DNA of 64,000 bases from Thecaphora thlaspeos (Eukaryota; Basidiomycota; Ustilaginomycetes; Urocystidales; Glomosporiaceae). Positions 49,623 through 53,033 of the stretch are shown here, piece by piece. The first letter of the stretch is position 1; each line of letters starts with the position of its first letter. The DNA is taken from assembly GCA_900291925.1 (NCBI GenBank), contig UWYS01000006.1, positions 992,001 through 1,056,000 of the forward strand. Reading direction: 5' to 3'. The translations under genes were made by a program, and so were the position numbers. The notes below the pieces were generated by a model that was given only the letters and a program-made list of their open reading frames with translations, was not told where the DNA came from and did no database searches.

Positions 49623-52600
49623 ATGTCGGCCCACACATTCTCCAGCCCTAACGCCGTCGCTGGCCCCTCGTTGCCGTCCTCCGCCTCTCGCAAGACCTTT
49701 TACCCGCAATGGCCAGAGACGCACGACGATGCAGAGTACCATGAGATCCCCCCGGACCACTTCCTCGCCCAGCAGCGTGGCCTACAAAAGCCTACCAAGA
49801 CACAGTCGCCACCGCCTGCCGTCGGGCGCCGCGGCTCGGCTTCATCGCTCGACAGCTACGCCTCCGCCGCCAGCTCCGCCACACAGACGCAGCCTTTGGC
49901 AGAGCTCGCCAGCGCCATCCAGGCCGGCCTTCCCATCTTCCCATCTCCAACTGCCGCAGTCGTCTCCCCGACGACGCTCGCAACACAGCGCCCTCTGCAA
50001 GATGTCATCCCTACGCCCATCCACTTTGCTGAGACGCACGAGGAGATGCCCGACACCTCGACCCTCGCCGCCGCCGACTTCGACGTGGACGTTCGCTCCG
50101 GCTTCCTTCCGCCAGAGGCGCCCGTCACCAGGCTCAACGGTAAGCACGAGGAGCTCTGGGAGGTCGCCCTGGACCAGGCCAAGACGATCCCCCTGATGCA
50201 GGGCGGCGGAGGCGTCCGCATCACCTCGCTTCAGTGTCTCCAGGCGCGACGGTGGCGGCGCTCGATCAGAGAGATGCCTGTGCTGCCACTGTCGGAGGAG
50301 GTCTCCACCGACATCCGCTACGCCCGTCGCGGCCACCTCGTCCTCTCCTTCCTGGCCCACTTCTACATCCACAGCCAGCCTCCCGCTGCGCCCGAGGCCG
50401 CCAGGCCGGCTCCGTCGTGGCGAGGCTACTTTACTCGCAAGTCGCAGCAGCAGCTCGACGACGAGCAGGACATCGCCGACGAGCTGGCCGGCAAGTTTAG
50501 CCGGACGCTCCCCGCCGCGATCGCGGTCCCTTGGGTCCAGCTCTCGCACAAGCTCGCGCTGCCGCCGATCCTCACCTACGCCACCACAGTCCTCTGGAAC
50601 TGGACTTATATCGACCCGGCAAAGGGCCTCATGCTCGACAACATCCGCATGCTCGAGTCGTTCACCAACACAAAGTCCGAGGAGCACTTCTACCTCACCT
50701 CGGCGCTCATCGAGATCCGCGGCGTCGAAGCGCTCGAGCTGATGCGCGTCAGCCTGGACGAGGCCTTTGTCGGCGACGTCCTCTCGAGGCGCAGGATCGC
50801 CGCCTACCTCAATCGGCTGGCCGTCGTCATCGCCGATCTGACGCAGCTGCTCCACGGCGTTCGCACCGACTGCGATCCCAAGGTCTTCTACTGGGGCATC
50901 CGTCCGTGGTTCCGAGGCAGCGACGCCGCCGAAGGCGACGAGCAGCCCGGCTGGCACTTCGAGGGCGTCGACGCGCCCGGCGTCCGGCGTTCCTTCTCCG
51001 GCCCCTCGGCGGGGCAGAGCTCGATTATTCACGCTATCGACGTCTTCCTGGACGTTGACCACACGCGCTCCAAGCTGAGGGCCAACCGGCCCGCCGTCTC
51101 GCCCGACTCGGCGGCAAGCGAGTCCGAGGCGATCCGCGGCGACAGCAGGGGCGCCGACGCCACCTTCATGGAGCGCATGCAGCTCTACATGCCCGGCCAC
51201 CACCGCAACTTCCTCACCCACCTTCGCAGCATCTCGTTCGACGACGACGACGAAGATGGAGACCCAGACAACAACGACGAGGCCAGAAGGGACAGCCACG
51301 CCGCCGACCCCAGTGGCAGCACGGTATCCCAAGGCGATGACGTTGCCGACGAGACCGAGGCGCAACCGGTCGAACGCCCGCCTCCGGTCTTTTCACACCC
51401 GATCCGCTCGCTCGCATTGAAGGCGCAGCAGGACGGGCAGGAAGAAGGGCTTCCCGCGGCGTACGACAATGCGCTCAACGCGCTTAAGACGCTCCGCGAC
51501 GGGCACATGAAGGTCGCCTACCTTTACATCATCGCTCAGGCCCGCGGCTCGCCGCCGGACGAGTACGCTCCGCTGCCCAAGGGCTTCACTGGCGTGATGG
51601 GCGTTGAGGGGGGAAAGCTGGGCTTCCAGCCCGATGATGTGCTTGCGGCGGCCGACAATTCACAGAAGGGCGCCAAGGGCACCGGCGGGACCGACCTCGT
51701 CTCGTTCCTCAAGGACTGCCGCGTCAATACGACCGACGCTCTCATCTCTATCGGCAAGAAGGCCACCGCGGTCGCCGCCGCTGCGATCTCTGACGCCGTC
51801 ACGTCGGTTGGCACCAGTGCCAGCAGCGGCAGCAACGGTGAGGAATCTTCGAGCGCGACCGGACAGGGCTCTGATGGTCAGTCTCTCGACGCGTCCTCGG
51901 CTCTGTCCTTGGAGCGTCTTTCTGTGACGGAAGAAGCAAGCGGTGACAACAAAGCTGACCTTGCATCGACCTCGTCTTCTTCTGCCGGCGGTCTGCAGGT
52001 CTGGGCCGTTAATGTGGCCGAGTGGGAACCGGAGGCGGTGGAGTTCTCGAGCCTTGTCGACCAGCTCCTCGGCGGCTCGGATTCGGCGGACGATCGCGCC
52101 AAGGTGCGGAAGTACTATCGGCAGATCGACCGGACGCGCTCGCTGGCGGCGAGGCTGCTGCCGCGTCTGATGTTCGCGCAGCTCTACGGCCTAGAGTGGG
52201 AGGCGATGAGGTTCGGAGCAACGCGTGAAGGCAGACCGTACCTCGAGGCACCGCCGTTGCCGAATGCGACCGACTTCAACATCAGCCACGACTCCGACTG
52301 GGTAGTATTGGCCTTTCACGCTCCCGCCACCGTCCCCACTGCCACTCAACAAGCACCAACGGCCGAGTCGGCCGCCATCGTCTCAACGCCCACGGTCACC
52401 GCCGATCGAGCAACGATGTTGCTCGACAGTAAGCCGGTCTCGCCGTCGACGTTCCGCGTCGGCGTCGACGTAATGCAGATTGTCCTGCCCAGATTTGAGA
52501 AGGACGTGCAATCGTTTTGCGAGACGATGGACATGGCGTTCACGTCGGACGAACAACGATGGGTCCTTGACGCGCTCTGGGCCAGCAGCGAAAGCGAGCC

Positions 52601-53033
52601 GGCGGCGGCAAACGAGGCCGAAGCGCTGTCCCGCCTTTTCGACCTCTGGACGCACAAGGAGGCATTCACGAAGAACATCGGCAAGGGCCTGGGATTTGAC
52701 TTCAAGACGGTCGAAATCTGCTTCTACCAACTCCGCGAGGGAACGAGGTCGACCCGCACTACGAGCACAGACGAAAGTGTCGAAACGATCTTAAAGATCA
52801 AGGGCACGCTCGAACCGGGCTACACGTTTACAAAGATTGTCCTGGACGGGAGTGGAGGAAGTGGGAGTCACTCGCAGGTGGTGGTAGCAGAAGGACCGTC
52901 TGAGAAGCGCGAAGGGAGACAGATCCGTCCGCCGATTCGGCAGAGTCAGGCGGTCGAGCAGGGCCTGTTGAAGGTGTGGAAGATGGACGAGTTGATTGAA
53001 TTCGCTCACGACCATGCGAGATGTGCTGTGTAG
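49623..53033 (+). CDS. Fusion of indoleamine 2,3-dioxygenase and 4'-phosphopantetheinyl transferase
   Basis: One uninterrupted frame from the ATG at 49623 gives 1136 aa. The first about 170 residues are a Ser/Pro-rich leader. Residues about 175-705 form an indoleamine 2,3-dioxygenase: PPILTYATTVLWNWTYIDP (from 314), FYWGIRPWFRG with the substrate-side Arg, GPSAGQSSIIHAIDVFL (from 460), FMERMQLYMPGHHRNFL, the likely haem-binding His628 in LRDGHMKVAYLYI, and GTGGTD (686). It opens L-tryptophan to N-formylkynurenine. After a Ser-rich linker, residues about 794-1090 form an Sfp-type phosphopantetheinyl transferase: WAVNV, FNISHDSDWVVLAF (His889), GVDVM (Asp949) and LWTHKEAFTKNIGKGLG (Trp1009, Lys1012, Glu1013). 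It would move 4'-phosphopantetheine from CoA to carrier proteins such as alpha-aminoadipate reductase. All key residues of both domains look intact. I know of no such fusion, but my knowledge is incomplete. Confidence 0.92.
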   Translation: MSAHTFSSPNAVAGPSLPSSASRKTFYPQWPETHDDAEYHEIPPDHFLAQQRGLQKPTKTQSPPPAVGRRGSASSLDSYASAASSATQTQPLAELASAIQAGLPIFPSPTAAVVSPTTLATQRPLQDVIPTPIHFAETHEEMPDTSTLAAADFDVDVRSGFLPPEAPVTRLNGKHEELWEVALDQAKTIPLMQGGGGVRITSLQCLQARRWRRSIREMPVLPLSEEVSTDIRYARRGHLVLSFLAHFYIHSQPPAAPEAARPAPSWRGYFTRKSQQQLDDEQDIADELAGKFSRTLPAAIAVPWVQLSHKLALPPILTYATTVLWNWTYIDPAKGLMLDNIRMLESFTNTKSEEHFYLTSALIEIRGVEALELMRVSLDEAFVGDVLSRRRIAAYLNRLAVVIADLTQLLHGVRTDCDPKVFYWGIRPWFRGSDAAEGDEQPGWHFEGVDAPGVRRSFSGPSAGQSSIIHAIDVFLDVDHTRSKLRANRPAVSPDSAASESEAIRGDSRGADATFMERMQLYMPGHHRNFLTHLRSISFDDDDEDGDPDNNDEARRDSHAADPSGSTVSQGDDVADETEAQPVERPPPVFSHPIRSLALKAQQDGQEEGLPAAYDNALNALKTLRDGHMKVAYLYIIAQARGSPPDEYAPLPKGFTGVMGVEGGKLGFQPDDVLAAADNSQKGAKGTGGTDLVSFLKDCRVNTTDALISIGKKATAVAAAAISDAVTSVGTSASSGSNGEESSSATGQGSDGQSLDASSALSLERLSVTEEASGDNKADLASTSSSSAGGLQVWAVNVAEWEPEAVEFSSLVDQLLGGSDSADDRAKVRKYYRQIDRTRSLAARLLPRLMFAQLYGLEWEAMRFGATREGRPYLEAPPLPNATDFNISHDSDWVVLAFHAPATVPTATQQAPTAESAAIVSTPTVTADRATMLLDSKPVSPSTFRVGVDVMQIVLPRFEKDVQSFCETMDMAFTSDEQRWVLDALWASSESEPAAANEAEALSRLFDLWTHKEAFTKNIGKGLGFDFKTVEICFYQLREGTRSTRTTSTDESVETILKIKGTLEPGYTFTKIVLDGSGGSGSHSQVVVAEGPSEKREGRQIRPPIRQSQAVEQGLLKVWKMDELIEFAHDHARCAV

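What the first reader, a model, noticed from the sequence alone, without database searches (positions are those of the whole stretch)
49623..53033. Single frame fuses indoleamine 2,3-dioxygenase with a 4'-phosphopantetheinyl transferase
The two domains lie in one 1136-codon frame with no intron signal and no stop between them, and both keep their catalytic motifs (IDO: GPSAGQSS, His628, GTGGTD; PPTase: GVDVM, WTHKEA). IDO opens tryptophan for the kynurenine/NAD route. PPTase activates carrier domains of lysine, siderophore or polyketide enzymes. A covalent link between tryptophan breakdown and carrier-protein activation is unexpected, and I know of no report of it. A possible logic is shared dosage or a shared complex, or control of PPTase supply by tryptophan and oxygen state.
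Basis: partly seen in the sequence, partly recalled or inferred. Interest (0 to 1): 0.93.

Follow-up and report, generated by a model that had tools for sequence, protein, structure and literature searches.

The report
Two-enzyme smut-fungus gene, possible splice switch
One smut-fungus gene joins the enzyme that breaks down tryptophan to the enzyme that switches on lysine- and siderophore-making proteins; relatives share the join, and the connecting piece looks like an intron whose removal would yield the first enzyme alone.

Summary
The fused frame is real. 49623-53033 (+) encodes an indoleamine 2,3-dioxygenase (PF01231) followed by an AASDHPPT/Lys5-type phosphopantetheinyl transferase. It is not an assembly accident: 18 of 42 database relatives carry the same architecture, and an IDO tree sets them, with one IDO-only model, apart from all other rows. 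It holds the only AASDHPPT_N domain found in this genome.

The variable linker keeps GQ[S/G] in 19 of 19 fused proteins. In the window it reads G|GTCAGT, with a CTGAC branch site and CTGCAG acceptor just before the PPTase. Removing these 122 bases shifts the frame and gives a 755-residue IDO ending SDGLGR. The deposited Ustilago loliicola model is IDO-only and ends SSDLGR, as the same intron would give there.

My reading: unspliced message makes IDO-PPTase, spliced message IDO alone. The fusion is well supported. The splice switch is about even odds: no RNA evidence, DNA of one species only, a weak donor. I found no report of the fusion in the library searched.

The parts
49623..53033 (+). Whole fused frame, 1136 codons plus stop: IDO - linker - PPTase
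   Evidence: 18 fused relatives
49623..50069 (+). N-terminal extension (residues 1-149), with the conserved stretch FYPxWPETHDxAEYxEIPPDHFLAQQR near residues 26-52; function unknown
   Evidence: part of it is also in the unfused Acaromyces protein P0022
50070..51737 (+). IDO domain (residues 150-705); conserved His628 at 51504-51506
   Evidence: PF01231 E 3.3e-114; human IDO1 match; fold match to human IDO1
51738..51998 (+). Linker (residues 706-792); no secondary structure predicted for about residues 722-789
   Evidence: pLDDT under 50 for 647-787, which also takes in the end of the poorly modelled IDO; variable in 19 sequences
51877..51998 (+). Intron-like element, 122 bases (2 mod 3), open in the fused frame only; GC3 0.56 against 0.80 for the whole frame
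51877..51882 (+). Putative weak 5' splice site GTCAGT; lies in the codons of the conserved GQ[S/G] of the linker
51955..51959 (+). Putative branch site CTGAC
   Evidence: CTGAC also in 4 of 5 reconstructed introns of this genome
51993..51998 (+). Putative 3' splice site CTGCAG (codons L791-Q792)
52010..52012 (+). TAA stop met by the spliced reading frame; would end a 755-residue IDO-only protein (...SDGLGR)
51999..53030 (+). PPTase (residues 793-1136), AASDHPPT/Lys5 type; AASDHPPT_N 52020-52313, ACPS 52455-52769
   Evidence: fold match to human AASDHPPT 2cg5

Best explanation
A conserved two-enzyme gene, by its named relatives of Ustilaginomycetes. Shown: one frame encodes an IDO and an AASDHPPT/Lys5-type PPTase, kept fused in 18 relatives, and this is the only AASDHPPT-type PPTase found in the genome. 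Inferred: the linker is an alternatively retained intron. When it stays in the mRNA, the ribosome reads through and makes the IDO-PPTase fusion, which supplies the PPTase that activates carrier domains (the alpha-aminoadipate reductase and NRPS enzymes are the expected clients). When it is removed, the frame shifts and stops three codons past the junction codon, giving IDO alone and no PPTase. Splicing efficiency at the weak donor GTCAGT would then set the ratio of PPTase to IDO made from one promoter.
For: Fusion. Only AASDHPPT_N hit in the genome; of the other two ACPS hits, one lies in a frame that reads like a fatty acid synthase subunit (not scanned against Pfam) and one in a PLA2_B frame. 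Intron: GQ[SG] in 19 of 19 linkers against a shuffle mean of 1.7 and maximum of 7; donor, CTGAC branch and CTGCAG acceptor in place; intron-like composition, GC3 0.56 against 0.80 and T 0.25 against 0.17, the 14 lowest-GC3 41-codon windows of the frame all overlapping it; one such candidate in this frame, against 5 in the other 21 long frames, 65.8 kb; P0020 of U. loliicola ends SSDLGR, as splicing at these two sites would give, and 4 of 96 codon sets for IWAVD fit, all with GTT for Val; the window also has the uncommon GTT (7 of 70 Val codons) that makes the stop. The residue before the junction is Q in 17 of 19 fused proteins, but R, V and G in the 3 unfused PPTases whose WAVD stretch I compared. 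No in-frame Met lies between GQ[SG] and the PPTase in 14 of 19. Intron retention is the main form of alternative splicing in U. maydis, with degenerate sites in retained introns (PMC2219887, passages and section 21 read).
Against: No transcript was seen. Only the window's DNA could be read; the rest is inferred from protein letters. The donor has C at +3, not seen in the 5 introns reconstructed here, and its enrichment over a control is slight, 12 against 5 of 71 sites, this site included; GTAAGT and GTGGGT show no excess at all, so that test is weak either way. A candidate of this shape is expected about 0.3 times in a frame of this length. Q is invariant, whereas a donor could have drifted to GTGAGT or GTAAGT, so a protein-level motif is possible. 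Two fused proteins (P0015, P0017) lack Q at the acceptor. The fused proteins are related, so 19 of 19 is not 19 independent cases. The U. loliicola model may be a gene-finder's guess.
Confidence: 0.5

Rival explanations
1. Plain constitutive fusion: the message is never spliced in the linker, every protein is IDO-PPTase, and GQS is a short protein motif (a modification or binding site) or an alignment remnant. The link fixes equal dosage of the two enzymes.
For: 18 relatives are recorded as fused, and within their clade only 1, P0020, as IDO-only; the Q of GQ[S/G] is the same in 19 of 19; the putative donor is weak.
Against: It gives no reason for the Q just before the PPTase, for the intron-like composition, or for the agreement of the U. 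loliicola tail with splicing at these two sites.
Confidence: 0.4
2. The intron is removed nearly always, so the main product is IDO alone, and the PPTase is made from a separate downstream transcript or a non-AUG start.
For: The deposited U. loliicola model.
Against: The PPTase's first strand (residues 790-797) must be translated, and 14 of 19 fused proteins have no Met between GQ[SG] and it; the other 5 do. In the window the element is open in the fused frame only, the other two frames having stops, and 19 proteins read through this stretch.
Confidence: 0.07
3. Assembly or annotation artefact joining two genes.
For: None found.
Against: The same architecture at 48-71% identity in 18 other proteins.
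Confidence: 0.01

Closest known systems
Indoleamine 2,3-dioxygenase (PF01231; human IDO1, fungal IDOs)
   Same: Domain, fold, motifs GPSAGQSS (SAGQSS in the human chain) and GTGGTD, and the histidine that aligns with the SYHLQIV stretch of human IDO1
   Different: Carries a C-terminal PPTase and an N-terminal extension; the 24 IDO-only relatives have short tails, 24 to 62 residues counted from GTGGT
AASDHPPT / Lys5 / Sfp-type PPTase (human 2cg5, 2byd)
   Same: Both Pfam halves, fold, sequence match, NISH, GVDVM and WTHKEA motifs
   Different: No start codon of its own in the linker of the window's gene; fused behind IDO instead of free-standing as in Parajaminaea P0044 and Cronartium P0052
SKI7/HBS1 of fungi: two proteins from one alternatively spliced gene (PMC3597508, abstract and outline seen)
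   Same: One gene, alternative splicing choosing between two proteins, conserved in many fungi
   Different: There splicing is shown by experiment; here it is inferred, and the long form joins two unrelated enzymes
Cryptic isoforms of metabolic enzymes in fungi including Ustilago maydis by alternative splicing or readthrough (PMC4207609, passages seen; the original Freitag et al. 2012 seen only as its reference)
   Same: C-terminal variants of metabolic enzymes by alternative splicing or readthrough, in a smut fungus too
   Different: There the added tail is a peroxisomal signal; here it is a whole second enzyme
Terreazepine cluster of Aspergillus terreus: an IDO supplying kynurenine to an NRPS (PMC7448278, passages seen)
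   Same: An IDO functionally tied to a carrier-domain enzyme
   Different: A separate IDO gene (tzpB) in the NRPS cluster; the word phosphopantetheinyl does not occur in the paper's text

Membership tests
Indoleamine 2,3-dioxygenase | PF01231 over cut-off, near full length | tested here: met
   382 bits against a cut-off of 26; profile 2-411 of 412
Indoleamine 2,3-dioxygenase | IDO fold and conserved His | tested here: met
   Foldseek against human IDO1, E 9.1e-15, target TM 0.73 (on the 36-row model); H628 invariant in 19 of 19
Indoleamine 2,3-dioxygenase | Turns tryptophan into N-formylkynurenine | not testable with these tools
   Needs an assay
AASDHPPT/Lys5-type PPTase | AASDHPPT_N plus ACPS halves | tested here: met
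AASDHPPT/Lys5-type PPTase | Fold of AASDHPPT and Mg/CoA-site motifs | tested here: met
   2cg5 E 3.8e-13, target TM 0.76; D949, K1012 and E1013 invariant; that these are the site residues is recalled
AASDHPPT/Lys5-type PPTase | Transfers phosphopantetheine to carrier domains | not testable with these tools
   Needs an assay or lys5 complementation
Alternatively spliced two-product gene (SKI7/HBS1-like) | Donor, branch and acceptor in place and of a kind used in the organism | tested here: inconclusive
   CTGAC branch and CTGCAG acceptor match local introns; the GTCAGT donor is weak
Alternatively spliced two-product gene (SKI7/HBS1-like) | Both readings give a sensible protein | tested here: met
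   755-residue IDO or 1136-residue fusion
Alternatively spliced two-product gene (SKI7/HBS1-like) | Sites conserved between species | tested here: inconclusive
Alternatively spliced two-product gene (SKI7/HBS1-like) | Both mRNAs seen | not testable with these tools
   No transcript data held

The most novel reading that the evidence does not exclude
A regulated in-frame intron acts as a switch. Its removal releases the tryptophan-breaking enzyme alone; its retention encodes the cell's sole AASDHPPT-type PPTase as a C-terminal second enzyme. Lysine, siderophore and NRPS activation would then be set by splicing of a tryptophan-catabolism message. The donor is held at GTCAGT because GTGAGT and GTAAGT would splice too well and GTTAGT would put a TAG stop in the fusion.
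Probability: 0.35. Interest if true: 0.88.

Novelty: new variant of a known kind. Interest (0 to 1): 0.7.

Why it matters
Fungal PPTases of this type are needed for lysine synthesis and NRPS/PKS products; deletion in Zymoseptoria gives lysine and iron auxotrophy (PMC6244202, abstract and outline seen). In the fused clade that enzyme seems to have no gene of its own and to depend on translation through an IDO; in this genome no second AASDHPPT_N domain was found. Any deletion of this IDO gene would then also remove the PPTase, which changes how such mutants are read. If the linker is a retained intron, it would be a clear case of one message choosing between one enzyme and two unrelated fused enzymes, testable by a single RT-PCR.

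Tried and rejected
Assembly or annotation error: rejected, 18 relatives.

Chance run of open frame: rejected, both domains score above the curated cut-offs.

A separate PPTase start in the linker: mostly rejected. 14 of 19 have no Met between GQ[SG] and the PPTase; the 5 exceptions are P0011, P0013, P0014, P0015 and P0016.

A second AASDHPPT-type PPTase in the genome: none found, but the search reads six frames without introns.

A TDO making the IDO redundant: none found. A second, diverged IDO does exist on C5, so the fused IDO is not the only one.

Fused relatives in plasmid records: 10 records match, each over 17-32% of the query in its IDO part, none fused.

DNA of relatives in viral contigs and genome contigs: none.

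Structure of the whole fusion: the IDO half came out poor with 19 rows, so it was modelled again with 36 rows. No statement on contacts between the two enzymes is possible from these models.

PPTase tree: only 5 of 25 inner branches starred; the fused rows need 2 changes on it, though its starred branches do not exclude 1. Not used to argue a single origin.

Papers on exitrons with fungi and bifunctional proteins: 1 unrelated paper.
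Full report
WHAT IS THERE. The frame 49623-53033 (+) is open for 1136 codons. Pfam gives IDO at residues 150-705 (E 3.3e-114), AASDHPPT_N at 800-897 (E 1.6e-15) and ACPS at 945-1049 (E 4.1e-10). HMMER aligns His628 with the His of human IDO1's SYHLQIV stretch, and the SAGQSS and GTGGTD stretches with the human ones. The PPTase half matches Sfp and human AASDHPPT by sequence. An AlphaFold model of the whole protein (19 rows) is good for the PPTase and matches human AASDHPPT 2cg5 (E 3.8e-13); residues 647-787, which hold the linker, are below pLDDT 50, but so is much of the IDO part in that model. 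A second model of the IDO part (36 rows, mean pLDDT 71.7) matches human IDO1 (E 9.1e-15).

RELATIVES. Of 42 database relatives, 18 carry all three Pfam domains (P0002-P0019) at 48-71% identity. Named ones are Pseudozyma flocculosa, Thecaphora frezii, Ustilago trichophora (two), Sporisorium reilianum, Kalmanozyma, Moesziomyces, Melanopsichium and Violaceomyces. The other 24 are IDO-only; named ones are Acaromyces, Exobasidium, Parajaminaea, Microstroma and Tilletia, plus Ustilago loliicola, P0020. That the fused ones are Ustilaginomycetes and the unfused named ones other than P0020 Exobasidiomycetes is recalled taxonomy. In an IDO tree of 38 rows (5 of 43 dropped for lacking the motif used to cut the domain) the 18 unfused rows other than P0020 lie on one side of one branch (support 99/96), and P0020 nests with two fused rows, P0014 and P0019 (98/96). 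With the root on the unfused side, which the tree itself does not fix, this means one origin of the fusion. The PPTase half alone, searched among proteins of about 194-616 residues, gave 12 PPTase proteins without IDO; the two with an organism name are Parajaminaea and Cronartium, and none bears an Ustilaginomycete name. The organism of the other ten is not stated, and some start inside the domain or lie on short contigs (P0045 on 1,063 bases), so they may be pieces. Among plasmid records there are 10 partial IDO matches and no fusion.

THE GENOME. Three ACPS domains were found: in a frame that reads like a fatty acid synthase subunit (not scanned against Pfam), in this gene, and inside a PLA2_B frame on C9. 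AASDHPPT_N gives one hit, this gene. No TDO was found; a second, diverged IDO lies on C5 and a 3-HAO on C19. Eleven carrier-domain matches were found; of the four scanned, two are NRPS pieces with condensation domains and two are AMP-binding plus carrier proteins. These searches read six frames without introns, so a gene broken by introns can be missed. Lys2 could not be searched, because the machine did not answer.

THE LINKER. Between IDO and PPTase the 19 fused proteins differ strongly, yet GQ[S/G] is present in 19 of 19 (GQS in 18, SSGQS in 14). In 2000 shuffles of the linkers GQ[SG] appears in 1.7 sequences on average, at most 7. The most shared tripeptide of any kind in a shuffle averages 11.3 and reached 18 once or more, so the count for GQ[SG] itself is the telling one, and related sequences are not independent. 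One of the 24 IDO-only tails also has a match, GQG in Tilletia P0039, in a GQ-repeat context. In the window the motif is TCT GAT GGT CAG TCT. Read as RNA this is G|GTCAGT, followed by CTGAC starting 44 bases before the end of CTGCAG at 51998, just before the VWAVN strand that starts the PPTase. The element is 122 bases, GC3 0.56 against 0.80 for the whole frame and T 0.25 against 0.17; the five most T-rich and the 14 lowest-GC3 41-codon windows of the frame all overlap it. It is the only GTNAGT..CTRAC..YAG candidate in the frame; with the looser GTNNGT a second donor (51803) shares the same acceptor. In 22 long frames, 69 kb, there are 6 such candidates, this one among them, so about 0.3 would be expected here by chance; what is unusual is the place. 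Of its three frames only the fused one is open.

WHAT SPLICING WOULD DO. Removing 51877-51998 shifts the frame and stops at TAA 52010-52012, giving 755 residues ending SDGLGR and leaving 1021 bases from this stop to the fused stop. The U. loliicola protein P0020 is IDO-only and ends SSDLGR. Fused Ustilago-type relatives read SSGQS...LQIWAVD; a G left by the donor joined to IWAVD gives DLGR-stop for 4 of 96 codon sets, all with GTT for Val. So the deposited model most likely uses these same two sites; its DNA was not seen, and whether RNA data lay behind it is not known. In this window, too, the Val is GTT (7 of 70 Val codons) and the Gly is GGT (5 of 75 Gly codons).

LOCAL INTRONS. Four introns of the Ypt1-like gene at 46829-48102 (-), which reads as 208 residues once they are removed, and one of the second IDO gene have donors GTGCGT, GTGGGT, GTGAGT, GTGCGT and GTACGT, CTGAC in 4 of 5, and CAG acceptors in 5 of 5. 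A second solution for the fourth Ypt1 intron (donor GTGGTC) was set aside. The linker fits in branch and acceptor, and less well in the donor. Over 264 kb, GTCAGT has an acceptor-like site downstream in 12 of 71 cases against 5 upstream; for GTGAGT it is 39 and 14 of 128; GTAAGT (11 and 11) and GTGGGT (13 and 15) show no excess, so this test is weak.

WHY THE PPTASE NEEDS THE LONG READING. Its first strand (residues 790-797) is part of the modelled fold, and the three unfused PPTases compared keep WAVD. In 14 of 19 fused proteins there is no Met between GQ[SG] and this strand. So the PPTase is most simply made as the tail of an unspliced IDO message.

LITERATURE. Searches for IDO with PPTase or gene fusion in fungi, and PPTase fusion in smut fungi, gave 0 papers. 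A 2026 survey of Ustilaginaceae gene clusters names PPT in the two passages found only as a synthase domain (PMC13208730, passages). A study of tryptophan breakdown in Sporisorium scitamineum has no occurrence of IDO, dioxygenase or BNA2 in its main text (PMC9431617, passages). In U. maydis intron retention is 59% of observed alternative splicing events, and retained introns have degenerate sites (PMC2219887, passages and section 21). The library holds open-licence papers only, so absence here is not proof.

VERDICT. The fusion is real, shared by a clade and probably functional. The splice switch is an inference at about even odds, and one RT-PCR would decide it.

Noticed in passing
L003 (G000:C9 around 553937-554251): An AcpS-type PPTase domain sits inside a cytosolic phospholipase A2-like frame, between the GGSGGG part and the DSGMSNN part. 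21 of the 120 listed relatives (188 found) carry both Pfam domains. With the synthase-like frame on C5 and the IDO fusion, none of the three PPTase domains found in this genome is free-standing.
   Followed up: partly
P0033 and P0044 (Parajaminaea phylloscopi): The unfused IDO and the free PPTase of this species are listed with the same longest contig length, 4,562,156 bases, so probably one contig. They may be neighbours, a possible state before fusion; the distance could not be seen.
   Followed up: no
window 49698-49778: A conserved N-terminal stretch (FYPxWPETHDxAEYxEIPPDHFLAQQR) ahead of the IDO domain in fused proteins, partly present in the unfused Acaromyces protein; function unknown.
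   Followed up: no
L005/L006 (G000:C5:988337-989302): A second, diverged IDO gene with at least one intron.
   Followed up: partly
window 46829-48102 (-): A Ypt1/Rab1-like GTPase gene with four introns, 208 residues when spliced, used as the local intron standard.
   Followed up: yes
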